Shown here in pieces: positions 3,172 to 60,285 of a stretch of 64,000 nucleotides of DNA. Under the pieces are notes generated by a model. The model worked only from the letters and a program-made list of their open reading frames with translations, did not search any database and was not told where the DNA came from. A program made the translations under genes and the position numbers. The stretch covers positions 380,807-444,806 of the forward strand of contig RDEW01000031.1 of assembly GCA_011109175.1 (NCBI GenBank). Reading direction: 5' to 3'. The stretch's first letter is position 1. Each line of letters opens with the position of its first letter. The DNA comes from Dicyema japonicum. Lineage: Eukaryota; Dicyemida; Rhombozoa; Dicyemidae.

Positions 3172-5696
3172 ATGTCATATTATCTGGTGTTTCTTGTATT
3201 AATCATTCCAAGCAAAGGACCTCATTTTCAGCTCTCAGAAACATTTTCTTAGTAAGAAATTTCTCCCTAACTGGATCGTCCAGTAATATGTATTGGAACG
3301 ACATGTTCACTCCCGGCGAGCCTGTATAATTTAACATAAATTAAAGAAATTTGAGAAAGTTCTCATTGCCAATCGGGGGGAAATCGCATGTCGAATTATC
3401 CAGACTCTGAGAAGACATGGAATCAAAAGTGTGGCTGTGTACAGTGAGGCAGACAGTGCTTCGGTAATCTGATTTGTAACCATTAGAAACACGTGCGGAT
3501 GGCGGACGAGTCTATTTATATTGGACCATCCCCCATAAATCAGAGCTATTTGCTTTTTGATAAGATAATTGATGCTTGTAAGCTAACTGGGGCTGATGGG
3601 GTATGGGTTCGGTTTACACGAGGTCCACCCGGGATATGGACTCTTGTCAGAGAACATGGATTTCTGCAAGGCACTTGATGCTGAAGGGATTACTTTCATT
3701 GGGCCAAATCCCAAGGCTATTCGAGCAGTGGGGGATAAAATAGAGAGCAAGAGAGTAGCTGCTAAGGCAAACGTCAACTGTATCCCTGGGTTCTCGGGGG
3801 AAGTTAAAAACGCTGACCATGCCGTTGAAATTGCTCGCCAAATCGGTACCCCTAGTTAACGATGGTAGGATATCCCGTCATGATAAAGGCCTCAGCTGGG
3901 GGTGGTGGGAAAGGAATGCGAGTTTCATGGGACGATGAAGAAACTCGGTTAAACTTAGCATTATTCCAGCCAAAATTACAAACTGTGTCACCAAGAAGCC
4001 TCCGTGATGTTCCTAGACGACAGATTACTCATAGAGAAGTACATCACATCCCAGCGACACATAGAAGTTCAGGTAGTCACGTGGTACAATTGTAGTTATT
4101 GGCGGATAACTACGGAAATTACATCCATTTAAATGAACGGGAGTGTTCGATTCAACGGAGAAACCAGAAGGTTGTGGAAGAAGCTCCCAGGTAGACTGAT
4201 TGGTGGATGGTAGTCCATTCGTTGACTCTGAAATGAGGAAGAGTATGGGGGAACAGGCGATCGCTTTGGCGAGGGCTGTTGGGTACACAAGTGCTGGTTA
4301 CTTCGATGATCTATTTTTAGGAACGTGTGAGTTCTTGGTGGACTCTGAACGGAATTTTTACTTTCTGGAGATGAATACCCGCCTTCAGGTGGAGCATCCA
4401 ATCACAGAATGCATAACTGGGATCGACATTGTCCACCAAATGTTGAGGGTGGCCAAAGGTACCACGTGGGTTTACATAGGCAACAAACTGCTCCACAAAC
4501 AGTCCGACATCCCTGTAAAGGGATGGGCTATAGAGTCACGTGTGTATGCTGAGGATCCTTACAAGTCGTTCGGGATGCCCTCTATTGGAAGACTTTATAA
4601 GTATCTTGAACCCACTCACGTGGATAATGTAACCCACGTGAATTACTGTTAGATCCGGTGTGACAGTGGAATTACTGAGGGATCGGAAATATCGGTCTAC
4701 TACGACGCCATGATTTCTAAGGTTGTGTCAAGTTTTATACTTTAGTTGATCTCTTACGGAAACACACGTGATCAGGCTATCAAGACGATGGTAAATGCGC
4801 TTGACTCTTACGTGATTTGCGGTTTCCTTGAAATTGTTATTTTTAGGGGTCACTCATAATGTGTCATTGCTGTGTGATATTATGGATGATGAGAAGTACA
4901 GAACGGGGGATACGACCACCAACTACCTACATGAGGCGTATCCTCAGGGATTCAAGGGTTGTAGTCCGAGAGTCAATTTAGGTCGCAATTTGAGTGAGGA
5001 TGAGTACCTTACTACCGTGGCTGTGGCTTCTGCTTTGAAATGGGAGTCGTTAAGTGCGATCAATTTTTCTCCAATTAAGCCGACCGGTGCTAAATTCTCA
5101 GTGAAAACGGAAAATGGGAAGGATTATTCGGTCTCTGTCCAAAAGAATGGAAGATGTTCTTATAATGTTGGAGAATGATGGACTTTTAGGTTTCTGTGGA
5201 TGGAAAGGAGTTGAATGTGGAGTGTGAGTTAAGAGGTGATGTTCTGACGCCTGTAAAGGTGGATGGGAGAGCTAGAATGTACCAACTATTGGGAATGGAG
5301 GCCAATGGGATCACGGAATTGCAGTATAAGGGGACAAAGGTGGAGATTTGTGCTTAAATAGATAAAAATGGACGTGATTGAGGAGAGGTTTGCCAGACTA
5401 GGGAAATACATGAAGGAAAGACCGGTGGAGGCCGAGAGCAAGTCCGTGAAATGTCCAATGCCAGGTCTTCTACGACAAGTTTTGGTGGAAATTGGCCAAT
5501 TGGTGGTGATTTATTGGATATGGTAGGTTAACAAGGGGATGGAGATTTGTGTGGTGGAGTCTATGAAGATGCAGAATAGTCTGAAGGCTGATTATGACGG
5601 GAAAGTTTGTGTTGATGTGATTGGTAGGTTAAGAATGTTATGTTTAAATCGGGGGATTCAGTGAATGAAAATGAGGTTATTGTTGAAATTGAGTAA
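3172..5696 (+). CDS. PCCA: Propionyl-CoA carboxylase alpha subunit, 19 exons with 21-26 nt introns
   Basis: Biotin carboxylase subunit of the mitochondrial enzyme that makes methylmalonyl-CoA from propionyl-CoA with ATP and bicarbonate; the partner is PCCB. Removing 18 GT..AG introns (3187-3212, 3324-3346, 3464-3486, 3601-3622, 3846-3868, 3948-3969, 4073-4095, 4191-4213, 4297-4320, 4459-4479, 4629-4652, 4722-4745, 4822-4846, 4958-4981, 5167-5189, 5340-5361, 5503-5526, 5605-5627) leaves 2106 nt, or 701 codons plus stop; human PCCA has 728 aa. Visible in order: a basic Ser/Arg-rich presequence, [20 protein letters not shown], the ATP-grasp loop [33 protein letters not shown], a PCC-type linker, and a biotinyl domain with ESMKMQN. 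The biotin Lys is about residue 667, 34 residues before the end, as in human. The first exon and intron are inferred from a mitochondrial-like N-terminus. Intron 17 could instead be 21 nt (5506-5526). Confidence 0.95.
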
Positions 5697-6840
5697 TTAT
5701 TTGACTTTGGTGGTTGTTTTTCAGTCATTATTATTTGGGGTTATTTGAGTAATAATATTTAATGATTTCGAGATTTAAATGTAAGGGGGACATTATTCTT
5801 TAAGCCATTTTCTGGATCTTTCTTTATGTTCCCATTCAGTCTTGTTGGGATTGAGTTTTTTATCATCCGATCAAATCCTCAAAAAAATACCCAGGAGGTT
5901 ATTAAATTTCCCTCATTAAAATAATAGGAGTGTTGGCCGTAAGTGAGGAGTAGTATGGCGTTGAATGCATATTAGGTAAAGTTAATGTACAAGAACACCA
6001 ATGTGTTCCATAGATAGGCACGAGACTTCCAAGTTATCCCATCTGTTTGAGATTACGTCATACCAGCTTGGCATCTGCTGAGTCGCCTCATAGAGTTCCA
6101 ACAGAATCAGTGATCATTTCTAATGTCCTGATAAATTTGAGGTAAATAAAACACCTCGCATCTAAGGTGGGGAGACTATCACCTCGAATAAGTCCTCTCC
6201 ATCTTTTATTTCTCCATGATTGGATTCTTAAAAGATAGCAGTTGAGACCCCCAGTTTTACATTAAAGCCAAGCAGAGCACTCCCAATTCGATTGGACGAC
6301 CGATAAAGAAAGTTAATTAGGATGCATGTAGTACGAACCTTAATGTGGTCCCTAATAACGACTTCTTACCATATGTTTCTACAAATGTAGGAAATAGCAC
6401 GTTAATTTAATGGGGACAACGTGAAGGACCTTGCATGATCACCAAAAAACTCGTCTCTAATATATAATGATATTCGAATTTCGATTTAGATGTTAACTCA
6501 AGAGATTACGGTCAGCTTCACGTAGGTCCCCTCATATTTACACTGCAGATGACATTCTTTCTCTTCGACTGACTAGGCAACACTCCTGCATGATAGGGAC
6601 TTTACTTCAAGGCTCATTTCAATCAGTGTCTTGTATCACTTCTAGTGATGACTTCAATCTTATGTACTTTTATAATGCAATTGATATGAGTCATCGATAA
6701 ATCTTGAACACAAAAAGACATAATGACTCTTCCAAGGAAATAATGAGGGGATACTCTCAATCAGTCGCAAATGTCAATCCCCCACTAACATATAAAATTA
6801 TTTACACCGACATCAGGAACTATGTCCGGGCAGGAAAAAA
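5697..6840. other. No recognisable gene
   Basis: No conserved family, long frame or clear exon-intron pattern was found on either strand. Short minus-strand open pieces around 5900-6300 are unassigned and could be worn repeat sequence. Confidence 0.4.
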
Positions 6841-7930: not shown

Positions 7931-8720
7931 TTATGAATGTCCTCACTGAATGGACAGCGGCCTCTATCCCAAGCGAATACCGACGCCTAATTGAGGGGGA
8001 TTCAAGAATTTTGTGACTAGTGGAATAGATTGTCTGGAGGCAATTTTAGCAGCCAGTCTTCTGAAGACAAACCCGACCGCGACTGGTCGTACTCCGCCTC
8101 CCTTATTATCAAAAACTATCAAATTGGCGGGGAACAGGACATGGCGGATAACTTCGGGAAGAACTCCAGACATGATCCGATTCATAAGTGAAGTAATTGA
8201 ATTCGTAAGACAAAGTATCTGGTCTCCTACGGACAAAGAGGTTAGATCCTTCAGGTTGCCAGGTCTCATTCCGTCGAGCCTGCCACTGCTACTAGATGCA
8301 AAATTCCGTATTGCGAGAAGAACTTCATCGTTTAATGCAATCATGGGACTCACTCCGGATGGGGGCCGACTTGGCGTAGGTTTTGAGGTGGCAGTGGATG
8401 CTTGTTCAGTAAAATATTGTAAGCGTTTGGAGTCGGTTTTCGTGGTCCACTCGAGGAAAGTTCCTGATGGCTGCGCGGGTGCCACCTTCGATTAACTTCG
8501 ACCGGACAGTTCTCTTGAGACGGAGCACATTCGACTTCCTCGTTGTGACCACGTGTCTTCCTCGTACGGTTAAAAGCCATGGGACAACTGGGGATGTGGA
8601 TACCTCCAAAAAAAGAGCGAATGTTGGTCCTCATGGTGGTAGCGAGAGACTCCTTTCTGTGACCATCTCGATCAAGTCCCAGTGCGGAAGGCGCAAAACT
8701 GAATAAGCGCATTTAATCAT
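7930..8720 (-). pseudogene. RLE-LINE reverse transcriptase, N-terminal half
   Basis: The minus-strand frame 8485-7964 reads as the fingers region of an RT family common in invertebrate genomes: VLLAIRNFASSSSGRLDGM, RPGNLKDLT, VRPVAVGFVFRRLAAKI. Upstream, in a second frame to about 8712, a basic linker with a FAPSALG..RDGHRK block is also typical. The palm motifs with YADD are absent, so the copy is truncated at its 3' side. The C-terminal halves of the same family occur at 34.4-35.7 kb and 47.9-48.6 kb, so this is one repeat family and not a host gene. Confidence 0.75.
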
Positions 8721-9203: not shown

Positions 9204-9818
9204 ATGCTGAGAATATGTAATAAAATTGATAAATTCATATTTTTGTTAAATCATCGGTTTTTTTCGATGTATAAGATCCCCAAAGTCCTTCCAGGGACGG
9301 TGATTTACGAAAGCAATTTCCCTATAAATATCCGACTTTTATCGTACCTCGGTCTCTTCTCAGTCTCAGGATACGTCGTGTTGGGCCTGAACATCTTGCA
9401 AATGGAAGTTCTAACAAAATCTGAGAATGAAGGCTACATTCAACGAATTAGTCACCTAATTTCCAATAACAAAAAGTCTTGGAGTTTTTTGGCGTTCACG
9501 TGTGGTTAAAGATGACTTTAATTGTTAGCATTCCTGATGGCCGGAGCCTTCGCTTTTTTGCCCCACAGAATTATCAAGTCAATTACACTCTTAGACAACA
9601 AGAATGTGAGAATTGAAACTTTTTTTATTCTGAAAAAATATGCCGGATTTGATTCTCCAATTGAAAAGATCTCTTTTTTGATGAGGAGGAGTGCTGATGT
9701 GAGGTACTTCACGTGCGTTGTTAAGGATAGGAAGTGGAAGTTCTTTCTTAGCAAAAGCGCTAATTATTGCAATTTAAATTACTTTGATAACTATTTTGCC
9801 TTGAATAGAATGATTTGA
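9204..9818 (+). CDS. TMEM223: TMEM223-like mitochondrial inner-membrane protein, one 24-nt intron
   Basis: Two frames join when the 24-nt intron 9505-9528 (GTTAAAG...TTGTTAG) is removed, giving 196 aa. Human TMEM223 has about 200. In TMEM223 order it shows VIYESNFPINIRLLSYLGLF (family: LFEHDRGRFFTILGLF), two hydrophobic segments at about residues 40-62 and 92-113, the second spanning the splice junction, and a C-terminal block RRSADVRYFTCVVKDRKWKF followed by LNYFDNYFALNRM (family: HRGEVPAMLPLKVKGRRFYF, LFDNTVGAYR). The family acts in cytochrome c oxidase subunit 1 biogenesis in the mitochondrial inner membrane. ATG 9204 is chosen because only non-ATG codons open the frame further upstream. 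Identity is inferred from motif order. The intron junction is strongly supported because it sits inside a transmembrane helix. Confidence 0.78.
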
Positions 9819-9859
9819 CTTATTTGCTGTGTCCGTGGTGGTTGTAGGAGTGGGGGGTT

Positions 9860-19870: not shown

Positions 19871-20469
19871 GAAAATGACGGTATTTCCGATGAAATGGAA
19901 ATAATTATCGATGATATTGAAAATATTGATTTAATAAATTCTTAAACGTTTTTTTTATTCGATTATTTTTTGGCATGGTTATTTTCGTAAAACACCGGTA
20001 GTTCAGAAAGTGTCTAACATTACTCCCGTTCCAGCATGTACCCAAGCAACAATTTAGTGGTGTACAGTCAGGTGACACCCACATTGGTTACTTTTAACTC
20101 AGAAAACAACAAAGACAACAAAACATTACCCATTTACGTACAGCCATCAAATGGACTGCACTTGTGGAACCGAACCCTATTTGCCTATCAAAGCCCACAA
20201 AAAGAAATCCTTGTGGGAACCGACCCCACACCTAAATAAGACGCGAGCGACATCACCAACCACTAGTATCTGCCTATGACGTTGGCCACGTGTTTCCAAT
20301 ATCCCAATTTTCATTGTACCACCTTTGATCTTTCATTAAGAATCCCATATAAATTATTGATTTTCAATACTTCAAAGAAATCAACGTTAATTAAAGGCCC
20401 AAGAGTTAATTAGTTAATATGGGAGTAGCTACCAATGTACCTCCACCTATCTCCACTCAACGTGAAATA
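19871..20469. other. No recognisable gene; 3' flank of the ORP9-like gene
   Basis: One plus-strand frame of 67 aa (20036-20239) is unassigned. I see no repeat ends or exons. Confidence 0.4.
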
Positions 20470-22445
20470 CTAAAATAACAAAGCGGACGAAACCTTTGGT
20501 TTGTACTCAATATTTTTCTCCATTCTGTGCTTTCGTTCATTCCGCTGCTTCTCCTCCAATTTGCTCTTGTAGAAAGTCGCTTGAGTGATATCGTCCTTGA
20601 AGAGGTTCTTAGTCACATCGTACCACTGTCTAATAGAGAATTAGGTCAGAGTCACCTCCGGGATTCATTTGGCTCCTGGACTTTCAGTGGTTGAACGATT
20701 TTTTTCATTACCGGAGTACTTTTGCAGTCAAAAAAAACTTGTGGTTCCTAAATTCATAACACGGTTAACCTGGTCCTTGGAGTACGAAATCATCATGACT
20801 CCGTTCCATGTCCCCTTAATTGTGCAGAACGATGACTTATTCCCCGGCGCGAAAATCTCAGCGGTAATCTCGTTTTTAAGGTTCTTGTACATCGGCTAAA
20901 ACTCATCAAAGAGGCTGACCTTGGTATGAAAGTTCACGGAGGCTGAGTAACCAGTCGTAGCCTTTAATTCCACCTTCCCTCCAAGTTCAAACCACGGGAC
21001 CGTCAGTATGGATCTGCATAAGTCAGAGTTTCATGGAAACCTTGCATATCCTGAGGGAAATGAAATAGTGTATGTCTCATTATGCTCCTCTAATCTTATC
21101 TGAGTCTCCCCAATCATGTCAACTCCCACGGAAAATCCCATAAACCGCGATTTCGTCCAGATTTGTCCTTCAATCGAAAATTTTTTGTTTTTGTTTTCAG
21201 CAAAAAAGGCACTCACTAAACATAATTGGGTTGATCACCTGGGGGATGGTGTGATACCTGTTCTACCAGGAAGGTCATGTCCCCTTCAGTAGCCCAGGGG
21301 ACGGGTCCAGTCTTCGTCAAGTTCTCAGAGTCCTCCAACTTCCAGTAACACCTGAAGATTTCCCCCAAAATTGGATTGTAAGGTTTTTTGGCGATATCAG
21401 GATTTCTCCCGGCGTGGAAGCAACTTAGATAAGCTCTGACCATCTCCACCATACGATCACGTGGGTTATTAACATTTGTAATTCTACTCACAGCTTCACA
21501 TTACTTAACGTATCCTACCTAGCAAAAAAATCACAGTGGGAGAAGAAATCAGCCAGCATTTCCAGAAGAGACCGCCTCTCAAGGATAAACGTGGGCAGAG
21601 TTATCTTAGTGAGGTCCATCCCGACTTTGACTTGCTTTAGGAGGTGTTTTATCACACTCTGGTTAGAAGGGGAACTTGAACTATTGGTGGCTTTGTCCAC
21701 CCCATAGAGGATGTCCTCGTCCACTGCTTCATCATCAGATCTGGGTCTTATCAAGCAAAAATACTGTAAATTCACGCAGTCGACAAATTCAGAAGACTCT
21801 ACCCGGGAGATGGATTGACACGTGCTCTGATAACCTCTCAGGGTTTGATCGATGTCCGTAAAAATGACTGAGAGTTTACTGAGGTTACTCTAAGAATTCC
21901 GATGTGAGTTACCTGTAAGGAATCGACTATGAGGTTGGCGTCCCCCGGGTTTTCAATCGATGTCCTCAATTTCTTAAATTTTAATTTTTGTCTTACTAAG
22001 GTCTCCTCGTAGATGACTTCGATCAGAGATTTTCCAGATTGCACGTCATTGGAAACGATGTTGTAAATCTCAAAGGTGGATTCGACCGGCTTGACTTCTT
22101 CCAACTGGAAGATCACCTCTTCGATCTTGTTAACCCAACTCATTTTCTCGTCATTACTCTTGGCTTGGAAGTAGACGACCGAATTATCTGCCGTGGAAGT
22201 CAATGTGAAGCCACTATCTTCAACATCGTCTACTCCTACGAGGGAATCCTCGGGAATTTGCAAATAAATTTACTTTTAGTGAGAATCGTCCACGTGGGTT
22301 CTTCCTTTTAGCCTTATCTTTCGACTGAACTTATTATAACTAATACAGTAAAGTATGTTAGCTCTGATTGGTCAATGTCCAGTACAAAATATCTCTCCTG
22401 CCATCCATTCGCATCACTTGTCCATTTACTGAGGAATCCTTCCAT
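20470..22445 (-). CDS. OSBPL9: Oxysterol-binding-protein-related protein (ORP9/10/11 type), 10 exons with 22-32 nt introns
   Basis: Lipid-transfer protein of membrane contact sites; ORP9-type proteins exchange PI4P and phosphatidylserine or sterol between ER and Golgi. Removing introns 22325-22346, 22249-22273, 21890-21912, 21487-21518, 21216-21238, 21014-21040, 20896-20919, 20748-20769 and 20630-20655 leaves exactly 584 codons (583 aa). An N-terminal PH domain (about 1-105) starts [21 protein letters not shown] linker follows, then the ORD (about 265-583) with [15 protein letters not shown], the family signature EQVSHHPP (about 361-368, split from VSAFFAE by a 23-nt intron), [37 protein letters not shown] and a C-terminal coiled [14 protein letters not shown] helix. 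Start ATG 22445 opens directly into the PH fold. It looks complete and functional. The exact paralogue (ORP9, 10 or 11) is inferred from PH-ORD layout and overall similarity. Confidence 0.95.
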
Positions 22446-33819: not shown

Positions 33820-34294
33820 TTATTTCTGTTTTCTGACCTCAGCAGTGTGGATGACGTCATCTTGGTTGACTATGGAGGGGGAAGGGGTAATAGTCTGAGA
33901 CCTCTTCAGATTGATAACAGAAGTTATCCTCTCGAATATAAGCCTCTTATGTTCGTTGTCTACAATGATTATGCATTCCTTGTTTGTCAGTCTCCTGCTT
34001 CCCATATAGACTACCCCCTTTTCAGAGCATTCAGTCTCAGATAAACACTCATAAATACAGCTCCTGTGGTCGGGTGGGTCAGGGTCACTGAATCACCTTC
34101 AAAATCTATTGTCCCGTTGTTCTCATCCATCGAAGCAGGCTTGAAGTCGTCTAAATAGATACAATAAATTTACAGCGGATAGTATGGTAATCATTTCTCC
34201 GTTTGTTGGGACTATCATTATAAAAAGAATCCCCCAGGACAATTTTGTATGATCCTTCGCTTAGGACGTCGTTTCCAACAATTTTAAAAATCAT
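33820..34294 (-). CDS. EAF: ELL-associated factor (EAF) family, 3 exons with 23-nt introns
   Basis: EAF proteins bind ELL and stimulate RNA polymerase II elongation as part of super/little elongation complexes in the nucleus. From ATG 34294, removing introns 34151-34173 and 34036-34058 (both 23 nt) leaves 143 codons (142 aa). Exon 1 ends and exon 2 begins inside the family hallmark, here FYNDSPNKRRNDYHTIR|YDF then KPAS (EAF1: FHTIRYDFKPAS). A SVTLTHPTTGA block follows, then NKECIIIVDNEHKRLIFERI (EAF1: DCVLIINHDTGEYVLEKL) and VINLKRSQ (IQVKKTR). The conserved N-terminal ELL-binding half is complete. The Ser/Asp-rich transactivation tail of the ~265-aa animal proteins is absent or reduced to about 25 residues. 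Further short 3' introns could extend it, but the obvious candidate (GTCAGAAA...CTGTCAG) leads straight to a stop. Confidence 0.88.
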
Positions 34295-34414: not shown

Positions 34415-35727
34415 AACAAAGTATGACAATGACCAGTTTAAATACACTCTCGAAAATTATGCATCGGTTCCAGTTGGGGAGTCTCTGTTCCTTGGTTCTC
34501 CTATATTCGAAGACCGAATTGTGGACGTGTTTAAAGAAAGGACAATAGAGCTCGGTACTTTTGAGACCCGTTTGCGGCATGTTGACAACCATATTGCCCT
34601 CTTCCATTTGAGAAACTGCTTGTCCATTCCAAGATTAAACTATTTACTAAGGACTGCACCATGTTATAAGTGTGATTCCTTTTTAATGGAATACTCTGAT
34701 TGCCTCAAAAGATGTACTGAATTCGTACTTAACGTTTCCCTTGACACCCCTGGATGGATACAGACTCAATTACCAATATCATTGGGTGGAATCGGTCTTA
34801 CTACTCCCTGCCAAATTGCTGGCCCGGCGTATTTTGCCTCAAAACTTTCATGCAAAAACCAAGTGGACTCAATTCTTTCAAAGCTTCCATCTCGGAAACT
34901 GTCCAATGACTTGGTTGAATACATGGACGTGTGGCGGAGTGAAGGGCTTAGCGAGCCGCGTAATCCAGACCAACAATCGTCTTGGATGATCCATAGATGG
35001 AATGCTCTGGCATCCAACCTAGTCAGCCGGCTCTCTGGACATCGCCTGGACTGTTTCCAAAATTCGAGGGAGGCGGTTGATGGATTTTGGCTTGGGTTTA
35101 CCCATGTCAAGAAGTTGGTGGATTGTTGGATGATGACTCCCTTCGTACAGCTGTATGTCTACACCTCGGATTGCCTGTTTGCACCAAATCGAAGTGCAAA
35201 TGTGGCTGTCTATCGGACGAACTGGGTCTCCACCTCCTCTCATGCCGGAGCGGAATTGGCAGATCTTCTCGACATTCGGCAATGAACGGCATCATTAAGA
35301 GGGCATTAGAATAGGCTAAATTCTTTGCCGGACCGAACCAACTGGTCTATTTGACAACGGAAGACGCCCTGACGGCATGACCTCCTTTCCTTTCGAGCGA
35401 GGGCGAAACCTTGTATGGGATGTGACCTGTGTCTGCTCTTTCGCCCCAAGCAAAAAAAATAATTCACCGGGCAGACCTTCTTCTCAAGCAGAGGAAATGA
35501 AAAATGCTAAGTATTCGGATATCAGCGACAGGTACATTTTCGCACCTGTCGCGATTGAAACTTCGGGGAACTTTGGCCCTAAAACGCTGAAGTTCCTGAA
35601 TCATCTTGGAAAACTACTATCCGACAAAACTGGTGATCTTCGTGAGACGAGATGGCTCAAGGAGAGGCTCTCGTTGGCTGTTGTCCGTGGAAATAGCTTA
35701 TGCATCTCCCAACAGCTGAATAATTAA
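34415..35727 (+). pseudogene. RLE-LINE: RT thumb and restriction-like nuclease (5'-truncated)
   Basis: The frame 34415-35285 reads VPVGESLFLGSPIFEDRIVD, HIALFHLRNCLSIPRLNYLL and LPISLGGIGLTTP, the region after YADD in this RT family. It then shifts frame to a zinc-binding CKCGCLSDELGLHLLSC (C-x-C...H-x4-C, about 35190-35250) and GRRPDGMTSFPFERGRN then LVWDVTC. The zinc knuckle, RPD and a following D are the signature of the PD-(D/E)XK restriction-like nuclease of R2-type LINEs, which nicks target DNA for target-primed reverse transcription. The tail FAPVAIETSG...LKERLSLAVVRGNSL ends at TAA 35727. Only 2-3 frame breaks and one internal stop are present, so this is the best-preserved copy of the family here. 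Confidence 0.8.
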
Positions 35728-35785
35728 AATTAACTATTCTTTTTCCTTATAATTAAAATATTAAAGATATATAAAACAAAGTAAC

Positions 35786-38545
35786 ACATTCTCATGGAGA
35801 CGTCGAAACCAATCCTGGTCCATGGAGAAGTTTTACAATTATACAACTGAATACGAATAAGATCAGGAAGAAAATCTTTGAACTCCGGGCACTCCTCCGC
35901 GAAAATGAGGCTGACCTCGCTTTAATACAGGAGTCCAAGCTATCTCCCTCCATACCAACACCCTCTTTTCCCGGATACACAGTGATCCGTAAAGATCGTC
36001 AGGGAGGACGCGGAGGAGGACTACTTACTATTATAAAGAACGATATTCCTTTTATGGATACAACTCAACGAACCTCAGAGCTTCTTGGCTCCGACAAGAC
36101 TTTGGAGCAGATTACTGTCAAAATCGAGTTATTCCCGTCCTTTTGGATCCATTTGGCTAATTTATATATTCCTCCACAAGGATCGTGTCCGTCATCTTAC
36201 ACCCCTGATTTATCACGCATTTCAACATTGAAAAATCTACTGTTATGTGGGGATCTTAATGCACGACATCCAGTTTGGCTCACTTCCCAATCCTCTGATA
36301 ACCGAGGAGAACTCATTGCAAATTATCTTCCTGACCTGATTATACTGAACAACCCTAACTCACATACGAGGACCCCATTAAGGATGACTGATAGCTGCAC
36401 ATCCCCCGACTTAACACTATGCTCACCTTCTCTGGCTGGACTCATTTCCTGGAACGTCTTTTACGGCTTCTCCAGTGACCACAATCCAATCCTTCTAAAA
36501 TTGAGAGGTCTTCGACGATACAGGAGACGGCCGGCGGAATCAAAAAGATTCAAGGATTATACGAAGGTTGACTGGTCTGGTTTCAGTAACCTTGTGGATA
36601 AATTCTTGGCTCGGAGATTATCCTTCCAATACGCTCTATTGACGAGGCCGCAGAAATTATCAGCGCTGCCATTCAGAAAGCTGACCATATTTTTATTCCT
36701 ATATCGTCATACAAGAAGTTTATTCCTACCCTCAGCTCTTATACAATAAGTCTTATAAAACAAAGAGACCGGTTGAAGAGATGCCATCTGATGGACCTGA
36801 AGTCCTTGACAGCCTCAGACAACTGAAATAAAAGGATCTGTCAGAGCATAAAACACAAGGACAAGAGATGGCAACATCTAGTTAACCACCTCGACAGGAA
36901 AAGTACATCCCGACATTTCTGGAAAACTCTTAAACAAGTCAAGTCGGAGCTAGATGATGCAGACGGAACCGGAAAGTCTTCTCCTGAACACTTATGCCAC
37001 CAACATCCTAACACCCTTATGAAACATTACGCTGGAATTAGCTTCAAACCATTCTCGAAACACCTGGACATTAAGGTGCGTGCCCATAAACCGAAGAAGG
37101 AACCTTACCACGAACTATTCACAGATGACCAAGTCTTGGATGTGATCACCAGATTAAAGAGCTCACGGGCGTGCGGGCCTGACAAAGTATCTTCTATTCA
37201 CCTAAAACACCTAAGCCACAATTGGCAACCTCACGCAATATACAACCTGTCCATTAACTAAATATTATTCTCAAGATTTGGGAGAATTCTATCATCAGAC
37301 CGATATTGAAGGCTGGGAAACCAGAGACAGAACCTGCATCCTACAGGCCTATTTCCGTTACCAGCACACTGTCAAAAATTATGGAGAAACTTGTATTATC
37401 AGTCAATATTTCGTATCTTCCATCAAACGCACAATCTTGGTTTCTATTGACATCAACAGAGCCTTTGACACTGTTTCGAGGAAAATCCTGGTTGGAAAAA
37501 TATTTTCTACTAATATTCGTCCGAATGTGAAATTATGGCTGGCCAACTTTTTGTCTGGAAGACGTGGAAGAGTAGTCAGTGGTGATCTCAGATCTAGATC
37601 ACGATTACTACCGAACGGGGTACCCCAGGGGTCTCCACTTTCACCAATTCTATTCAACCTATTCCTACACGACCTACCTAATGATAGAGACGAAGATTCC
37701 CTGCTATTATCCTACGCAGACAACGTAGTCATTGCAATACGGAACCGCTTGACGCAAGTCGCAGGACTCGCTCGCTTGGATCCCTTAAAACTCAGACAAA
37801 ATTGAACACTCTCCACGATTGGATTGTTGGCAATCGACTTACGATTTCTGCAACCAAGTCCATCTGTTCCACTTTCACTTCGGACCGTCGTTCCAAGGAT
37901 GAACCGAGTATCTTTATTGATCCCACTCGGATTCCAGTGACAAGGTCCCCCACTGTCCTTGGAGTCAAGTACGACAGTCTACTCAATTTCAACTCCCACG
38001 CAAAAGACATGATTACCAGGGGCCTCCAGAAAGTTAACGTTTTACGCGCCCTTGTCCGGAGGACCACGAGGAACATGGACTTTTCCGTTTCTACCCTCTA
38101 CCAACAAACAATCGCGCCTGCCGTTGAGTATGCCTCCGTTGCATGGAGATTCGCGCTATCGGAGTCTATGGTCCAAAGAGTCAACTCGATACACCGGAAA
38201 ACAATCAGTATGCTTTGCCCACGTAATGGATCAACAGTCGACCCACTACTCATGGAAGCTAAGATCCGTAGTCGTGGCTCCGGATTTCTTCGCGTTTGTG
38301 AGGATGATGGAAATCCGCTTCGCCTGATCCTTTCCATGGCAAGAGAAAAACCGATTGGATAAGAAATTCCCCTCCCCGATCGGATTCCTCTGCAAGACCG
38401 AGAGTAGGCTCTTCCGGAAAGTATTGGGGACGATGGAAGATCACAGACGTCGAATGGCACAATTGATTGCGAGAACTGGGATCACCTAACTGTTTGACTC
38501 TTTTGTCTTTCTTTCTCGATGTTCCCGGGGTTATTAAAATAAATA
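35786..38545 (+). pseudogene. LINE A: 2A-like peptide, APE endonuclease and RT (nearly full-length)
   Basis: It opens with HGDVETNPGP (35793-35822), an exact match to the 2A consensus D-x-E-x-N-P-G-P. The APE-type endonuclease follows: IQLNTNKIRKKIFEL, LIQESK, NLLLCGDLNARHP and SSDHNPILL (catalytic N, E, D, SDH). After a linker with frameshifts comes the RT: YRPISVTSTLSKIMEKLV, IDINRAFDTVSRK (motif A), LPNGVPQGSPLSPILFNLF (motif B), SYADNVVIA (motif C) and LGVKYDSLLNFNSHAKDM. The C-terminus ends near RRRMAQLI..TGIT and the 3'UTR in CCCGGGGTTATTAAAATAA. Motif C is YADN, not YADD, and there are at least four frame breaks, so it cannot be active. Everything upstream of the 2A is lost (in-frame stop five codons before). 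Confidence 0.85.
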
Positions 38546-38549
38546 AAAT

Positions 38550-39765
38550 AAAAACACATTCTAATGGTGCAGATGGAATTCCCATAATCCTCCTGAAAAA
38601 CCTAGGAAATGAAGGAATCGGTACCCTGACCAAAATCTACAACTGGTCGATTAATTATAACTCAATTCCAACAATATGGAAACTTGCAAACATCCTCTCA
38701 GTATCGAAGCCAGGAAAACCGAAAGAAGACCCAGCTTCCTTCAGGCCTATTTCTCTCTTATGCTCCATGTCAAAAATTCTGGAAAGCTTATCCTCGCAAA
38801 AATCATTGAAAGGACTCCCGATAAATTATTCCATCATGGTTTCAAAAAGGATCGGTCCACAACGAGTTTCCTCACATCCCTGACTAACTTTATTCGCTCT
38901 GGATTTCTGTGCAAGCCAAGACACCAAAAACTGTGTTCTGCTCACTGAACGTCCACAAAGCCTTCGATTCTGTGCCGAGGAAGAACCTAACATGGAAATT
39001 TACCAATCAGATATCCCTGAAAACCTAAAACGCTGGCTGATGAACTTCCTTAGCGGACGAAGAGGTAGAGTGTGCATTGGAAACATTAATTCTGTCTCCC
39101 GTTTATTCCCAAATGGAGTACCCCAGGGCTCGCCGCTATCACCATTACTATTCAACCTGTTTTTTGTTGACTACTCGAGTGGTTTAATGAAACTCGGATG
39201 TCAATCAATACCGAAAAATTTGTTACAACTCTATACCTCGGACAAAAGATTGTCGAACAGGACAATAGAAGTTACTGCGGAGGGAAGAGAATTGCCTTCA
39301 GCAAATGGCAAAAAATATTGGGTATGACTTTCGATACCACATGAACTTTTCGAGACATGTCACTAACGTGCTGAACAAATGTGAGAAAATCAACCTTCTG
39401 AAATGCCTAACAGGTCTATGGAAAATTAGACATCACCCTATACTTAAAACGCTCTACTCACAGTACATCGAACCATGCATTTCATATGCGTGTACTTCAT
39501 GAGGACCACTGGCCTCTTATACGAACATCCAGAAAATCTCCGCAACCCAGAAAAGGGACTAACTGAAAGATGGTATACAAAGGAACATATCAAATCACCG
39601 ACGCCCTTGGAGACACTAATTGAAAAAAATGAGAAAGGAAACCAATGCCAAAAAGAAAGTGCTCGTCCGCAACGAACTTGTGTAGGTTCAAGGGATTAAC
39701 ATCGAGAAAAGATGAGAGCCTTGATCCAATTCGTCGGGATCACTTAGTTTAGTTTTTCAGTTTAA
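38550..39765 (+). pseudogene. LINE A-related RT fragment
   Basis: It begins abruptly at the RT fingers (NGADGIPIILLKNLG, WKLANILSVSKPGKPKEDPA, FRPISLLCSMSKILE). Motif A is shifted (NVHKAFDSVPRK), then LFPNGVPQGSPLSPLLFNL (B). Motif C is deleted, and after the gap come ISYACTS and the C-terminal IEKNEKGN region. It sits immediately after LINE A in the same orientation but differs in sequence, so it is an independent insertion of a related subfamily (same as the copy at 51.9 kb). Confidence 0.75.
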
Positions 39766-39839
39766 CAGTGGTCTTTGGAATTTAATTTAATTAATATTAT
39801 TTCAACATTCGTAAAATCATAATAATAATTTCACTCGTG

Positions 39840-42440
39840 CAGCATTCAAAACAATCCTCCGAACCAACTTCTTTTAACCTCCTCGATCGTTGGAGAGTTT
39901 CCTCAACTCGTCCAGGTCGTCCCCACTTCTTAAACGTTTGTTCACGAGCTTTAGATCTCCGTCAAGTGTTTCAGGTAGTGTAATACGCCGGCGTCCACGA
40001 AAGCACTGTCTCATAAAGTAGTCCTCCATTGCTATGTTTGCCGGAGCGCCCAAGTCCATACGCAAGATATGTCCAAATAGCCTCCAGCGCATATCAGCAA
40101 TTTCGAGACTCTGTGGACCCGTGCAACATTTCTTGTACAGCGATTCCTTTTTTATTCTTGCTGGCCAGTTCAGTCCTAGTAGGGATCTAAGTTGTCTTCG
40201 ATGGAAAGAGTCTAGTCCAAGTTGTTCGGTTTTAGACGTTCCCCAGGTCGATGAATTGTACATTAGGATCGGCTTGACAAAGGCTTCATACAGTCTCAAA
40301 CGAACTGATGTGCAGGATCGTCGTTTACCAATCCACTTTTTCTTCAACTTGTTTATCGTTACCCAAACGAGGGCCTTCCTTCTGGCAATATCTTGACTGT
40401 CTCCAAGTAAAGGGCCAAGTTTGTTTGTTTTTCGCCATGTTTCACTTGATCTGCTTTCCATTCTCCTGATTTTCACAATGTCAGTTTTTGCGGTTTTCAT
40501 TCCAAGGAACCATTGGTTCAGCTCAGCAGAGGCCACCTCGAGGAGTCGAAGTAGGGCCGATTTGTCTTCTGACACAAAGTCGATGTCGTCCGCATGGCTC
40601 CATAACATCTGCAATGGATCTTCCTGTCCTGAATCCACTGTGACTAGGAGATAGATAGTTGTCCACTTGTTCTCTGATTCGGTTCAACGTAACTAAAGCC
40701 AGAAGTTTCCGTAAGGTGTTTAGCAGAATTATTGGACGTAGGTTTTCAACAGACCAGCATGCTTGTTAGGTTTTTGTATTGGTATTAATAGTCCGGATCC
40801 AAGAGCTGGGTATTCTTTTTTTTATAAACATAGAGTTAAGTAGTTTTGCCAACTTGTATGTTAGTGCAGATGGTCCATATTTGACAAGTTCTGAATTGAT
40901 TCCATCCGGTCCAAAAGAGGGACCATTCTTAAGTTTGACCATTGCATTTGAGATTTCGCCAGGTGTGATAGCTTTATCAAGTTGGGTGGCGTATCCACAA
41001 GATGATCAGATATTTCTCCGCGGACAGTTAATATATCCTCGAAATACGATGTAATATATTCAGCCTGATCTATGGGATTTGTTAAGAATCTTCCATTTCC
41101 GTCATGGAGTTTGAGTTTGTTCGTTTGTTTTCTTCTGTTGAGCAGACGGATTGCAGTGAACATTTTTGATGAGTCTTAACTGTTCAACTTCTGCAGCTCT
41201 TAGATCAAGTAGGTTAGTGGCGTGCTTCTTATTCAAAATCTTTATGGTTTTCTGGCTGGATCTTCTAGACTTCAAGATTTGTTTCCTGTCCGGATCAGAC
41301 GTATTTTCCAGTTGTAATCTTAGTTCCCTTTGTAATTTAATGAGGACGGGAACATCTGGATGTATACATTTTTTAAACAGTGCTGGGGACCAGGTTCCGA
41401 TACTCCCATTTGCTGCCGAAAGGATCCATTTCATTGTCTCCGTCCAGGTGCCTCCTGGAGAAAGTCCGGATCCAGGTTTCGGAGAAATTTCGTAACTGAT
41501 AATTGGTAGTTGTCTCTGATCGATGTAGAGTAGCACAGTTGTTCCATTTATAGTTTCTTCTTACATCTAAGTTTGGCTCTCTTCTTATTAAGTTAGTCAA
41601 AGTCCTCATTGTGAACTTGGAAGAGACTATCTTGTGATTACTGTTGATAGATGCACCTCCGTAAGACCTCGAGTCAGGTAGGAGTGATTTTTCTTTGACT
41701 CGGCAGATGATGTAGTCGATTTGATTGAAAATGTTAATAGAGCCTTTGGTAGGTAAAAGTCGTTGCTTAGTCCATGTCGTTTTATGACGTGCGGGATGTT
41801 GGAAACCAGTATTACATAGGAACAGATCAAATGCCTGGCAAAACTCTGCCAAGATGGTTCCGGGGAAGTTTCTGATTCCTCTTCCGTGCTGGCCAATGAA
41901 GCTTTCATTTCCTCACGGGTTCCCACTTTCGCATTCCAGTCCCCGGCAATAAACAATAAGTATGATGAACAGAGGTCTGTTAATGTCCTTCCCAATTCCT
42001 CGTAGAACAGGTCAAGTTCTTCCGGATTTTTTAGGATACGTCCACTGTGTAGTGCGTAAACGTTAATAATTGAGATTAGTCTCCTCGAATTTCTGCTTGA
42101 TCTTGTACGTAGTTGTAAGACACTGATTCTGTCATTGACTTTCCAGTAACGATATACTCTCGGAATATAGTCCTTGTGTATGGCAAAGCCTTGTCCATAA
42201 TGCCTAGATTCCGAGGGAAGCAATAGTAATCTGTAATGTGTTTCATCGAGTCCATTTTTTATTTTAGTCTCCTGCAGGCATACAGAACCCCGGTATTTCT
42301 CAACATCGGAACATAGAAGCTGCCTCTTAGCCACGTTATTCAGGCCTCTGACAATGAAGGTTAGGATAGTCAGGACATTAAATTGTTCTGAATCCTTTGC
42401 AGACATCGGTGCAAGAGAGGCACGTCACCACCTCAAGCAA
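39840..42440 (-). pseudogene. LINE B: endonuclease and RT, most complete copy
   Basis: The minus strand starts at ATG 42406 (MSAKDSEQFNVLTILTFIVR). The APE endonuclease has VCLQETKIKNGLDETHYRLL, FIAGDWNAKVGTREE, then after a frameshift NQIDYIICRVKEKSLLPDSR and NSNHKIV. A linker follows to 41100, then HDGNGRFLTNPIDQAEYITS. The RT fingers (NLRPIILLNTLRKLLA, SHSGFRTGRSIAD) run directly into HADDIDFVSED near 40600: motifs A and B (roughly 100 residues) are deleted and the YADD Tyr is His. The C-terminus is well kept (RLRLYEAFVKPILMYNSSTW, RLFGHILRMDLGAPANIAM, FRGRRRITLPETL, GDDLDELRKLSND). Inactive, but the reference copy for this family. Confidence 0.85.
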
Positions 42441-49795: not shown

Positions 49796-50571
49796 ATGAT
49801 TTTTATGATTTTGTCAATTTTGTTCTTTAAGATTCTCAATGATTCAGAAAATATAACCGAAATTGCATTGTAAGTATAATTTCAGTAATTCAAGGGATAA
49901 ATTCAATTCAATGGATAAAAATAAAAACGGTAAAGTCGGAAAAAATGAATTCGTATATTACACAAAAGAAATGGGTTTCAACCGAATCTTGGAAAAAAAC
50001 AAAAAACTATTCACAGACAACAACATCACAGGCATGAACATTTCTCAATTGACAACTATTATGAAAATAGAGATCCCTGAAAATATATTTGAGACTCATG
50101 ATTTGAACAAAGATGGAGTTATCTCTCCGGAAGAACTGGTTTCTATATTGGATCCAGAAATCGATATAAATTACCAAATAATAAACGCCATGGTAATAAT
50201 GTGCGGTTAATGTCCTTTTAGAATTTTTTTATGGAGTTTTACGACAAAAATAATGACGGGATCCTCGATTTGGAGGAGTCAATTGGTTCTCGTTAAACTT
50301 AGTTTAGCGTGCAAACATTTGAATTTATATGCGTATGACACGGATGGAGACAACGTGCTTACAACAGAAGAATTAAAGCCTCTTGTGATTCAAAAATATG
50401 TAGACAATCGTCAAATAGACAGAATATTCAACCAAATTGATTTGGATAAAGTTGGTGAATAAATATTCATGTTAGAATAATTACATCTCCTTCGGTGAAT
50501 ACGTAGAAATGTTCAAAAAAGACCGAACATCAAAATCCTATGAAAATTTAGAATTCGACAAAGAATTATAA
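49796..50571 (+). CDS. Secreted five-EF-hand calcium-binding protein, introns 22-29 nt
   Basis: Removing introns 49870-49894, 50193-50221, 50286-50307 and 50451-50475 (25, 29, 22, 25 nt) leaves 225 codons (224 aa). A hydrophobic start MIFMILSILFFKIL looks like a signal peptide. Five canonical 12-residue EF loops follow: DKNKNGKVGKNE (32-43), DLNKDGVISPEE (94-105), DKNNDGILDLEE (132-143), DTDGDNVLTTEE (156-167) and DLDKNNYISFGE (190-201). The last is assembled across the fourth intron, which otherwise introduces a stop. Each has acidic residues at positions 1, 3 and 12. The signal peptide and multiple EF hands suggest a secretory-pathway protein of the CREC/calumenin kind. The C-terminal DKEL resembles but is not a canonical KDEL signal. 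Start ATG 49796 is the only one upstream in frame that yields a signal peptide. Exact orthology is not assigned. Confidence 0.88.
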
Positions 50572-53135: not shown

Positions 53136-53139
53136 TACA

Positions 53140-55950: not shown

Positions 55951-55954
55951 TGTT

Positions 55955-56500: not shown

Positions 56501-56504
56501 GAAT

Positions 56505-56720
56505 AAGCTGTAGTGAGGATGATTCCAAAACCAGGGAAGCCAAAGAGAGATTCGGCGAGATACAGGCCACTTAGCTTAATATGTTCTTTCGCGAAAGTGA
56601 ATGAACGTATCAATTTCAAAAGGCTAAGCAGACATATAGAGGAGAATGACTTTCTGATTCCGGAGCAGTGGGATTTTCGTATCGGAAGAGGCTGTGCAGA
56701 CTGTTTCTACTAAATTCTGA
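56505..56720 (+). pseudogene. LINE D RT fragment
   Basis: It reads RMIPKPGKPKRDSARYRPLS, then LICSFAKVNERINFKRLSRH and EENDFLIPEQWDFRIGRGCA, homologous to the RT fingers at 12.1 kb (ERIIFKRLNEHMEESCFLLA). It is cut before motif A. Confidence 0.75.
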
Positions 56721-57039
56721 AATCATAAAAGCAAGGAATTTCAAAAAATCATGCGAACTCTGAATAAGCCGTGGGAAAAGTACTTGAAACAGAAATACAC
56801 AGAAAATGAACAATGCACACAATCTGCATTATTTGGGACTGGACTATGGACAGGTGGGAGATAACATTGACGACATAAGGAGAGGAGGAAGAGAGCCTTT
56901 TAGTCAATCCTATGTACACAAAAGTTACACGTTAGCCGTGGCATTTATTTGTTCATTTTCAAGTGAGTTGTTTTGCCTAGTCTACTTTATGGGTCCGTAA
57001 CCATGCAAGGGATTTCATTAATGGCTCCGTAACCATTTG

Positions 57040-57420
57040 ATTTGGAGTGATAAGTTGACTTATCAGTCCGGACACAAAGATTGCCCCGGGTTCTCATGCT
57101 ATACAACAATAACTAACAGTGCAGTTAGGCTACTCAAACTGGTAGAGACTGACATTTCGCTAGAGGGAAGAATCGTAAAACACAGATTGGCGTTCTTTGG
57201 GCATGTTGTCCGCTCTGATTCACTGGAAAGAACCATTATGCTGAGCAATATTACTGGGAAGAGAAGACCTGGCCGACCAAGGACTCGTTGGGTATCGATG
57301 GTGGAAGACGTCACGGGAATGCCTATATCAAGGCTACTCAAAATTGCAAAGGATCGGGGAGAGTGGAGGAAACTCGTTCATGAGATCTCCAAGGGTCGGA
57401 CACGACTAAATTGAACAATA
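57040..57420 (+). pseudogene. LINE C-terminal fragment (L2/RTE-like)
   Basis: An open frame reads LEGRIVKHRLAFFGHVVRSD, then ITGKRRPGRPRTRWVSMVED and VTGMPISRLLKIAKDRGEWR to stop. The FFGHV.R, GKRRPGRPRTRW and D.R.WR series is the common end of L2/RTE-type LINE polyproteins. No stops within the frame. Confidence 0.75.
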
Positions 57421-57424
57421 TAAC

Positions 57425-58050
57425 ATAACATAGCAGTTAGGGACCGTTAACATTCCGCTGTGAAATTTTTAAATCAATGTTAAAATGATTTTTTCGAGAT
57501 TAAATCAAAGATGGAAGACATGGGCAGATATCCAGGTTACAAGTACAGAGATGAAGTGGACCTTACATGTGGTTACAATGACTTAATGTCAGTTTAATAG
57601 GAATAATTTATTTTTTAATGAAGCCGACAAATCTTAAATATCATATCTCAAAAAGGCAGACGAATTTGTTTCTGGCCAGAAGTCAAACTATTTCTAGAGA
57701 TCTGCTTTGTGGAGATTAATTAAGAAACCTTCACCTTTGTGGAGATTTATCCAGGATTCCAAAACTAACCTCTGGAGAAAGCTTGGAATGGACACAAGGA
57801 TCACTTAATTTGACGGCATCTTGAAAGGGACACTGGTTAATAAATTAAATTAATATATAAAGAATTTAAATTCGAAAAATAAGATCATTTTAAAGGTAAA
57901 ATGTGTTAGATAAGTTATCTGAGGTTAGTAATTCAAAAATTAGGCAACAGATCCCCGTCTACAAAAAATTAAAAAAATAAACCTTTGCCTGAAACTTCCA
58001 AATGATGAAGAAATGTTAAATGAAGAAGGATTTTTTCTGAGGATTATTTA
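57425..58050. other. No clear gene; weak LINE A-like tail
   Basis: Near 57770-57850 the sequence reads NLWRKLGMDTRIT and stop, followed by a TTAATAAATTAAATTAA tail, faintly like the LINE A terminus. The rest is AT-rich and unassigned. Confidence 0.3.
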
Positions 58051-58051
58051 A

Positions 58052-60285
58052 TCAAATATACTTTTTGTATATAAAGACGCCAACTACAACCGCGATAACT
58101 GCGAGAATGCCGAAAAAGATGCCGACCCCAAGACCAACACTTTTTTTGGAAGGACCTATATGCTAGAGAACAAAGTTCTACCAGATGTTGATGCTGAATA
58201 GGTTGCCGAATCTAAGAAAATAAAAATTCATCATACGGTATCCAACACAGACAGCTATGTGTTTTTCTTTGCATCTTGTGGCAATCCATGATCCATTTTG
58301 TGCAACAGTAATGCAAACTATTCCATCGTCATTATAAAATGGTTCGTTAGGAGCCCATGGAGTACGGTCCTAATAATGAGACTGTTAATAGAAACAGGTT
58401 CATCCCCAATCCACGTAAGAGTGGTGTCATTCCATAAAACTCTGTAGTCCATAAAAAATCTCTGATTTTTGATTTCTAAAATCAGGTTTGCTATTACCTT
58501 TATTCAATTCCTTAATTACGTAGGTAGAAGTTGTCTTGACCAGGGAAAGACCAAACTGAGAACAGAGTCTTGCAGAATCGTGATAAGATAATATTCTCCC
58601 AAACATTGTGTAAGTTTTTGAATTTAATTTAACTGAGTATGTCTCATTTTCTAAATCTAAAAATATTTATTCATTTATACGCCAGAAATTATTTGTGCAG
58701 TTTATGTTGGAGTAATTGTCTAAATAAATAACAAATTAAACAATTATTGTCATTTTTATAACAAACGAATCGAGTGTTGTAGCATTTATCGTTAATCCAT
58801 TTCCCCGAAGCATATTGAGCATAGACGCACCCATATTTTTTGGAATCCTTAGGATAACCTGTATCCCAGTTAGTAAAATTCTTAAATAAAATAAGAAAAG
58901 TACTGATTTGAGTTGGTCTCCTCTCATGAGCACGTGATTAAGGTAGACAGAACCATAGTTTAATCCAATATCGAATTCGACATTTTCTATAATTCAGTTT
59001 TAAATAAAAACCAAAAACAGCACAATTTTCGACAGAATTAAATGGAGCATAGAGAACCGCATTCTTCATAGCACAAACATTAAGTGCCTGATCTCTTGTA
59101 GCCAAAAAGTCAAACACATAGAAAGAATTGTTCTGAAAATAAAATATCTGTGAAAAATAGTCTAAAGTAAATATTAGAATTCTACGGAATTTGTTTTCTT
59201 CACTGCAGTCTTTTGGGGTGGCACCATTAATTACGGAATCTGTTTTTATTAGATTACAAAAACACCTGATTCACAGATAATATATGCAGGTTCTTGACAA
59301 TCCATGGTTGCAAATTCTCCAGTCATATAATCACGTACCACACATTCTTTGTATATCATATCCAGTGACCCCCATGGAAGATATGACTAAATTATTTAAA
59401 ATCTAAAAACCGCTAAATAGTTTTTTTCTGTCATATAAGTATTGTTCCCATAATTTAGAATTCCAACGAAAGATGGAGCAACAACTAACTCTATAATTGT
59501 ATTGATAATTTATAAATACCATGAACAGCACAGTTTTCAGTTCCATCATTTGGAATGAAGAGATAACCATTGTGGTCGTACTTGCAAATTTGTCTTGCGG
59601 TTGCATAGTCCCTGGCTGCCTTATAGATGTAATATGTGTGTCCTCTGAATGTAGTCATACTGTCGTAGGGTACTAAAGTTATAATTCGCTTTCAACTATT
59701 AATCCTTTTCCCGGAAGTTATATTTAGTCCATTTGATGCGATTTTATCTATTTTTATTATTGTTACTACCTGCTTCACAAATCCAGAATGCTTTACGATA
59801 TTGGTTGGCGACTCTCCATTTGCCTGACCGTGCCATCATTTTGACTGCTGACCAATAGTAAGGTTTTGAAGCTGTAGTATCCCAATTGGAGTATGTCTAC
59901 TTTATTAAATGAATAATACAATAGCTTTATATGTGTGATCAACGTAAAATATTTCTGTTCCATAACCCAATCTCCATACTCCAATACCTCTGTCTCTATA
60001 GATAACGCCTAAAATTGCTAGACAGTTCAAACTATTCAAAGCATCATTTTCTTCTTGATTTTCAATATACACGTTATAATATTTATAAACGTGGCAATAA
60101 TAACTGTGGTACACATAGTACCAGTCTAATGCTGAAAGGTAATACGCATGTCCATTGTAATTGTATGGAGTTTCATAAAACTTCACTAAAAATAATAGAA
60201 TTAGTGAATACATCCGAAGCAGTCACTGATCAATACTAAAATTGTTAAAGATATACTTACGAGTCACAGCTAATAGTAGAATCAT
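58052..60285 (-). CDS. Type I membrane protein with four C-type-lectin-like domains, 18 exons
   Basis: Removing 17 GT..AG introns of 22-29 nt (first 60236-60260, last 58156-58181; lengths in order 25, 26, 23, 22, 24, 29, 24, 26, 24, 25, 23, 22, 24, 22, 26, 25, 26) leaves exactly 606 codons (605 aa). A signal peptide (MILLLAVTLLISDCFG) is followed by four diverged CTLDs. CTLD1 has ITYSNWD...GKWRVA...FWICEA. CTLD2 has ENCAVHG...MDCQEPAYIICES. CTLD3 has NFTNWDTG...SGKWINDKC...FVCYK. CTLD4 has LTWIGDEPDRTPWAPNEP...GSWIATRC...AVCVG. A transmembrane helix (about 578-600, VGLGVGIFFGILAVIAVVVG) and a KKYI tail end it. The four domains repeat the Cys and Trp framework, pointing to internal duplication. 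Classical EPN and WND sugar-binding sets are incomplete, so ligand type is open. A surface recognition or adhesion receptor is inferred. Confidence 0.9.

What the first reader, a model, noticed from the sequence alone, without database searches (positions are those of the whole stretch)
3172..60285. All recognisable host genes carry GT..AG introns of only 21-32 nt
I reconstructed 51 introns in six genes (PCCA 18, ORP9-like 9, lectin-like 17, EF-hand 4, EAF 2, TMEM223-like 1). Nearly all are 21-29 nt (one is 32), mostly GTA or GTT at the start and TAG at the end, with no evident polypyrimidine tract. In all six genes the exon sum is an exact multiple of three and the junctions fall in conserved motifs. 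Such introns are near the physical minimum for a spliceosome. The intron density of PCCA (18 in 701 codons) is normal for an animal, so introns were shortened, not lost. Dicyemid mesozoans are known for introns of about this size.
Basis: partly seen in the sequence, partly recalled or inferred. Interest (0 to 1): 0.9.

Follow-up and report, generated by a model that had tools for sequence, protein, structure and literature searches.

The report
Animal introns of about 23 bases
Genes here are interrupted by introns of mostly 22-27 bases, a known oddity of dicyemids, tiny parasites of squid and octopus; the parts of the splicing machinery that were checked look mostly ordinary, so how such short pieces are cut out is an open and testable question.

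Summary
Confirmed, and known in kind. A gene finder with a flat intron-length prior (15-150 nt), run on the window and 20 other 10-kb stretches, converged on 22-28 nt (136 of 176 introns, mode 23). Reversed and shuffled sequence gave no introns of 21-28 nt. In PCCA, 10 of 14 called introns coincide to the base with human junctions found in print: they shrank in place, though 6 of 16 printed human junctions have no intron here.

Dicyemid introns of this size have been published since 2007. That this is a dicyemid is inferred; the rRNA search failed.

Further details: the 5' site reads AG|GTW with +4 to +6 near background; an A is enriched 7-9 nt before the intron end without extra U2 complementarity; U2 and U6 motifs are canonical in the copies read, U1 in 7 of 8; U2AF1/2, SF1, PUF60, SMU1 and RED are present; no SPF45 UHM was found. 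U2AF2 and PUF60 carry 68- and 77-nt introns. No RNA evidence was available; the mechanism is inference.

The parts
3288..5696 (+). PCCA gene, coding part homologous to human PCCA, 14 called introns of 22-25 nt
3324..3346 (+). PCCA intron, 23 nt, human c.183 (printed junction)
3464..3486 (+). PCCA intron, 23 nt, human c.300 (bounded on one side only)
3601..3622 (+). PCCA intron, 22 nt, human c.414 (printed)
3846..3868 (+). PCCA intron, 23 nt, human c.637 (printed)
3948..3969 (+). PCCA intron, 22 nt, human c.716 (printed)
4073..4095 (+). PCCA intron, 23 nt, human c.819 (printed)
4191..4213 (+). PCCA intron, 23 nt, human c.914 (bounded on both sides)
4297..4320 (+). PCCA stopless 24-nt intron, seen as an 8-residue insertion against human
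4459..4479 (+). PCCA stopless 21-nt intron, seen as a 7-residue insertion against human
4629..4652 (+). PCCA intron, 24 nt, human c.1284 (printed)
4722..4745 (+). PCCA intron, 24 nt, human c.1353 (printed)
4822..4846 (+). PCCA intron, 25 nt, human c.1429 (bounded on one side only)
5167..5189 (+). PCCA intron, 23 nt, human c.1746 (bounded on one side only)
5340..5361 (+). PCCA intron, 22 nt, human c.1899 (printed)
5503..5526 (+). PCCA intron, 24 nt, human c.2040 (printed)
5605..5627 (+). PCCA intron, 23 nt, human c.2118 (printed)
9267..9818 (+). TMEM223-like gene (Pfam TMEM70/186/223) with one 24-nt intron
20410..22445 (-). ORP9-like gene (PH + Oxysterol_BP), 9 called introns of 22-27 nt plus one resolved by eye to 32 nt; the last introns lie beyond the Pfam domain
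33820..34294 (-). EAF gene, introns 34036-34058 and 34151-34173, both 23 nt
49911..50571 (+). EF-hand gene pieces; Pfam scanned the first (no intron), the second has two called introns (22, 25 nt)
57940..59434 (-). C-type lectin-like gene, 12 introns of 22-26 nt called by a permissive model

Best explanation
These are genuine U2-type spliceosomal introns of an animal, most likely a dicyemid, that shrank in place to mostly 22-27 nt and are removed by a largely ordinary spliceosome working at the limit of its geometry. Shown: the lengths, the conserved positions, the base signals, and the presence of the genes and snRNAs named. Inferred: U1 recognises AG|GTW with exon bases -2 and -1 giving the strongest positions outside GT. 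U2AF1/2 and SF1 (or PUF60) engage a short T-rich 3' end that usually ends in YAG. U2 takes an A about 7-9 nt before the intron end without needing a strong branch duplex. SMU1 and RED hold U2 and the tri-snRNP together when 5' site and branch are only about 14-20 nt apart, where the extended U6/5' site and U2/branch helices described for the human B complex would not both fit. The confidence below is for the first sentence; I would put the inferred steps together at about 0.4.
For: Flat-prior convergence on 22-28 nt and empty controls. Spliced PCCA, pyruvate carboxylase (17 introns) and SDHA (7 in the aligned part) align to solved animal proteins over their length with few gaps. Human junctions shared. 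In 133 introns called without splice-site scoring: -2 A 56%, -1 G 54%, +3 A or T 82%, +5 G 14%, +6 T 29%. In 111 such introns A is enriched at -7 (46% vs 29% in shuffles, p 0.0005), -8 (p 0.001) and -9 (p 0.0055), T at -6 and -5 (13 positions tested). Canonical U1, U2, U6 motifs in the copies read. U2AF2, U2AF1, SF1, RED, SMU1 and PUF60 present. Human B complex estimated to need about 52 nt between 5' site and branch (PMC6692369, Discussion part 1 of 2).
Against: No transcript evidence. Branch position rests on base enrichment only; U2 complementarity is no better than in shuffled introns (3.65 vs 3.67, p 0.59, 84 introns). Against exon-side reading: intron bases +3 to +7 separate real introns from exonic decoys better than exon bases -3 to -1 do (AUC 0.82 vs 0.73), and U1 matches at +3 to +6 are also raised (1.29 vs 0.95; exon side 1.35 vs 0.74); part of this is the T-richness of introns against coding decoys. 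Roles of SMU1, RED and U2AF are carried over from human work; presence of a gene is not proof of use. Hits for SF1 and RED cover only part of the Pfam domain. Species not proven.
Confidence: 0.85

Rival explanations
1. The segments are sequencing indels or assembly errors that break continuous coding sequence.
For: None of weight; two stopless segments in PCCA could in principle be translated.
Against: Sharp length peak in genes on several contigs, a T-rich composition and shared base signals, human intron positions in PCCA, and no such introns in reversed or shuffled sequence.
Confidence: 0.01
2. Splicing here follows the human SPF45 (RBM17) route, in which the SPF45 UHM displaces U2AF65 on short introns with a truncated pyrimidine tract.
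For: Short introns without a long pyrimidine tract; the route is described in PMC8363638 (abstract and Discussion read). A G-patch most like that of SPF45 exists on C130 (E 1.2e-6, 56% over 43 residues).
Against: Two six-frame searches with human SPF45 found no UHM of its own; the UHM hits are a PUF60-like gene and U2AF2. The C130 frame meets a stop 8 residues after the Pfam G-patch match, with no UHM before it. U2AF1 and U2AF2 are retained.
Confidence: 0.12
3. The host is not a dicyemid but another lineage with tiny introns, such as a ciliate or an orthonectid.
For: Paramecium bursaria has median 24-nt introns with an exon-side 5' signal (PMC12862383). rRNA identification failed here. The mean printed for D. 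japonicum is 38.2 bp.
Against: Long conserved proteins read through with TAA, TAG and TGA as stops, and PCCA introns sit at human positions. Orthonectid introns have a printed median of 57 bp. Size and GC fit D. japonicum.
Confidence: 0.06

Closest known systems
Dicyemid miniature introns (PMC2222250, PMC6543705, PMC6736024 seen as passages; Ogino 2010 not seen)
   Same: Short GT-AG introns at conserved animal positions; printed mean 26.2 nt (n=16) and median 27 bp; weak 5' boundary in print for 41 introns (PMC2483917); size and GC near D. japonicum.
   Different: Mode here is 23 nt with a sharp lower edge at 21-22, against a printed mean of 38.2 bp in D. japonicum gene models. An A signal near the 3' end is detectable with 111 introns, where none was reported with 41.
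Tiny introns of Paramecium bursaria (PMC12862383; passages and section 18 seen)
   Same: Median 24 nt, signal at exon -2/-1 and none at +4 to +6, SMU1 retained.
   Different: There RBM17 (SPF45) is reported present and LUC7L absent. Here no SPF45 UHM was found, LUC7 genes were not tested, +3 is A or T in 82%, and stop codons are standard.
Human short introns dependent on Smu1/RED (PMC6692369) or SPF45 (PMC8363638)
   Same: Short 5' site to branch distance or truncated pyrimidine tract; SMU1 and RED genes present here.
   Different: The human model introns are longer (56 nt for SPF45; ~52 nt needed between 5' site and branch in the B complex estimate). Here the whole intron is about 23 nt.

Membership tests
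Dicyemid-type miniature introns | Narrow length distribution around 22-28 nt across many genes | tested here: met
   136 of 176 introns at 22-28 nt; 199 of 239 at 21-28 nt in the second model
Dicyemid-type miniature introns | Weak 5' intron boundary | tested here: met
   +4 to +6 carry 0.01, 0.00 and 0.03 bits in 172 introns; the unscored set of 133 agrees
Dicyemid-type miniature introns | Introns at positions conserved in other animals | tested here: met
   10 of 14 PCCA introns exact to printed human junctions; SDHA c.1064 exact and c.770 under a GC-AG reading, while printed 1260/1261 has no intron here
Dicyemid-type miniature introns | Host is a dicyemid | tested here: inconclusive
   Size and GC fit; rRNA search unanswered
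U2-type spliceosomal introns | GT-AG ends with U1, U2 and U6 snRNAs in the genome | tested here: met
   U2 155 bits and U6 108 bits over cut-off; U1 69 bits, just under its cut-off of 69.5. U4 and U5 not searched
U2-type spliceosomal introns | Removed from RNA | not testable with these tools
   No transcripts available
SPF45-dependent short introns | SPF45 with G-patch and UHM | tested here: inconclusive
   G-patch found, UHM not found in two searches; a divergent or split UHM could be missed
Smu1/RED-dependent short introns | SMU1 and RED genes present | tested here: met
   SMU1 on C123, RED_N on C68 (part of the domain)
Smu1/RED-dependent short introns | Splicing depends on them | not testable with these tools
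   Needs knockdown or in vitro assay
Ciliate tiny introns | TAA/TAG read as glutamine (recalled for Paramecium) | tested here: not met
   Conserved proteins read with the standard code

The most novel reading that the evidence does not exclude
This animal splices almost all of its introns with a human-like set of factors but without the two long RNA helices that define the human B complex. The 5' site leans on exon bases, there is no selected U2-branch duplex, and the SPF45 UHM has been lost. The only two longer introns that homology verified here sit in genes for 3' splice-site factors (U2AF2, PUF60), where they may act as sensors for autoregulation. Probability lowered from 0.25 to 0.2 on re-checking, because intron bases +3 to +7 discriminate better than exon bases and ten other long calls are unresolved.
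Probability: 0.2. Interest if true: 0.8.

Novelty: already known. Interest (0 to 1): 0.5.

Why it matters
[quoted passage not shown] Here the whole intron is about 23 nt, yet U2 and U6 keep canonical motifs in the copies read and U2AF, SF1, SMU1 and RED genes are present. An animal in which most introns are minimal offers a direct test of which spliceosome contacts are dispensable. The exon-side 5' signal, also reported for Paramecium bursaria, makes a clear prediction about LUC7-type U1 proteins. Position conservation in PCCA shows that introns were shortened where they stood.

Tried and rejected
Long introns: one search printed 17 calls over 29 nt in genes with at least 2 short introns. By reading them I judge that PCCA 252 runs past the true stop; L023 68 splits into a 32-nt intron and a 36-nt exon; ORP9 41 becomes 32; L040 253 hides an acetyl-CoA carboxylase exon; the two L025 calls (219, 237) lie 5' of the SDHA homology. 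U2AF2 68 stands by homology. Ten were left unresolved. PUF60 77 was found by hand in L052.

Decoy avoidance in exons: rejected. GT..AG pairs at 22, 23, 25 and 26 nt are as common as at 18 control lengths (3.37 vs 3.35 per kb, 31.7 kb of exon). Selection against stopless 3n introns: not claimed. 36 of 172 introns are 3n, but the finder misses stopless 3n introns, as PCCA shows. RNA folding of the two long introns: no significant structure (z -1.12 and 0.51). SDHA: junctions 770/771 and 1064/1065 were seen in print and are matched, 1260/1261 was seen and is not; c.312, 621 and 895 match my recollection only; c.1458 and 1653 match nothing that I know.
Full report
What was checked. The window is C117:380807-444806 of a 64.67-Mb, 191-contig genome. 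I wrote an exon-intron Viterbi finder (each strand apart) with codon usage, GT..AG introns and a flat length prior from 15 to 150 nt, and let it re-estimate codon usage and lengths on the window plus 20 stretches of 10 kb from five contigs. It converged on 22:27, 23:41, 24:25, 25:24, 26:14, 27:4 and 28:1, which is 136 of 176 introns in 56 genes; 2 were shorter, 15 fell at 29-59 nt and 23 at 60-150 nt. With the codon table held fixed, real sequence gave 120 of 169 introns at 21-28 nt, against 0 in reversed sequence and 0 in three dinucleotide shuffles. A second model with splice-site scoring on 42 sources gave 199 of 239 introns at 21-28 nt, with 4 at 21 nt and none at 18-20 nt.

Genes. Elsewhere the same structure appears in predicted genes that read as a dynein heavy chain, pyruvate carboxylase, CAD, dynamin, SDHA, acetyl-CoA carboxylase and U2AF2 (names are my reading except pyruvate carboxylase, SDHA and U2AF2, compared with solved proteins). 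Splicing 17 introns out of pyruvate carboxylase gives a protein that aligns with few gaps, the largest of 9 residues, in the part of the alignment that was printed. SDHA, with 7 introns in the aligned part, has two single-residue gaps.

Shrunk in place. The called PCCA introns map to human c.183, 300, 414, 637, 716, 819, 914, 1284, 1353, 1429, 1746, 1899, 2040 and 2118. Human junctions that I saw in passages of PMC10493020, PMC8073151 and PMC8944130 include 183, 414, 637, 716, 819, 1284, 1353, 1899, 2040 and 2118, so 10 of 14 agree to the base and phase. The other four are only bounded by exon labels. Printed junctions 231, 468, 1209, 1540, 1643 and 1845 have no intron here; 105 lies outside the alignment. 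Two further stopless introns (24 and 21 nt) fall at c.997 and c.1135 by my count and match no junction that I saw printed. For SDHA, c.1064 and, under a GC-AG reading, c.770 agree with PMC7758838 (passages); the printed junction 1260/1261 has no counterpart.

Signals. In 133 introns called without splice-site scoring, the 5' site reads (A)G|GT(A/T), with +4 to +6 near background. In 172 introns of the scored model, -2 and -1 carry 0.49 and 0.89 bits and +4 to +6 carry 0.01, 0.00 and 0.03; that set leans on its own scoring. In 111 unscored introns A is enriched at -7 (46% vs 29%), -8 and -9 (41% each), and T at -6 and -5 (60%, 56%), against within-intron shuffles. In 84 introns U2 complementarity is no better than in shuffled introns, and U1 matches average 4.63 of 9 against 3.70 in 266 exonic decoys; exon -3 to -1 alone gives AUC 0.73, intron +3 to +7 alone 0.82, positions -10 to -3 alone 0.92, everything 0.97. 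So the intron side is not free of information; against coding decoys its T-richness counts. Exons do not avoid decoys.

Machinery. The 12 U2 copies read, of 25 hits, carry GTGTAGTA. Of 8 U1 copies read, of 11 hits, 7 carry ACTTACCTGG and one ACTTACTTGG; all 11 U1 hits lie below the family cut-off, the best just under it. The one U6 copy read, of 10 hits, carries ACAGAGA. Canonical forms are recalled. U2AF2, U2AF1 (56), SF1-HH (76), RED_N (66), SMU1 (89) and a PUF60-like gene (63, 96, 97) are present. An SPF45 UHM was not found (57, 65). A G-patch on C130 resembles that of SPF45 but its frame stops shortly after the domain (69, 70, 96). The UHM piece called PUF60 scores close to SPF45 as well (E 2e-11 vs 1.1e-9), so that name rests also on the two RRMs before it.

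Mechanism. If the branch lies at -7 to -9, the 5' site to branch distance is about 14-20 nt. PMC6692369 (Discussion part 1 of 2) estimates that the human B complex needs about 52 nt, made of a 17-nt U6/5' site helix, a 14-nt U2/branch helix and about 21 nt between. Both helices cannot form in full on a 23-nt intron. Weak signal at +4 to +6 and the lack of branch complementarity are what one would expect if they no longer do. This is inference.

Known or new. Very short uniform dicyemid introns are in PMC2222250 (passages), PMC6543705 (passages, citing Ogino 2010, not seen) and PMC6736024 (abstract and passages). PMC2483917 (passages) reported the weakest known 5' boundary and no branch signature in 41 Dicyema introns, so the weak 5' site is known too. 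I found no dicyemid spliceosome inventory in two searches, of which I saw listings and, for four papers, passages. The library lacks most subscription papers, so this is weak evidence of absence.

Noticed in passing
L049:801-868 and L052:570-646: U2AF2 has a 68-nt intron and the PUF60-like gene a 77-nt intron with GTAAGT and a pyrimidine-rich 3' end, far above the norm; both genes encode 3' splice-site factors.
   Followed up: partly
L053 (C130:234301-234900, minus strand): G-patch most like that of SPF45, with an in-frame stop 8 residues after the domain match and no UHM before it.
   Followed up: partly
L025, minus strand, SDHA, human c.770: A 27-nt intron best read as GC..AG, which restores the conserved junction.
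   Followed up: partly
L040, minus strand, acetyl-CoA carboxylase: By my reading one junction needs a non-AG 3' end; could be a sequence error.
   Followed up: no
window 1-600, 7964-8712, 34686-42406: Pieces that look like DDE transposase and LINE reverse transcriptase/endonuclease between the host genes (by eye, not searched).
   Followed up: no
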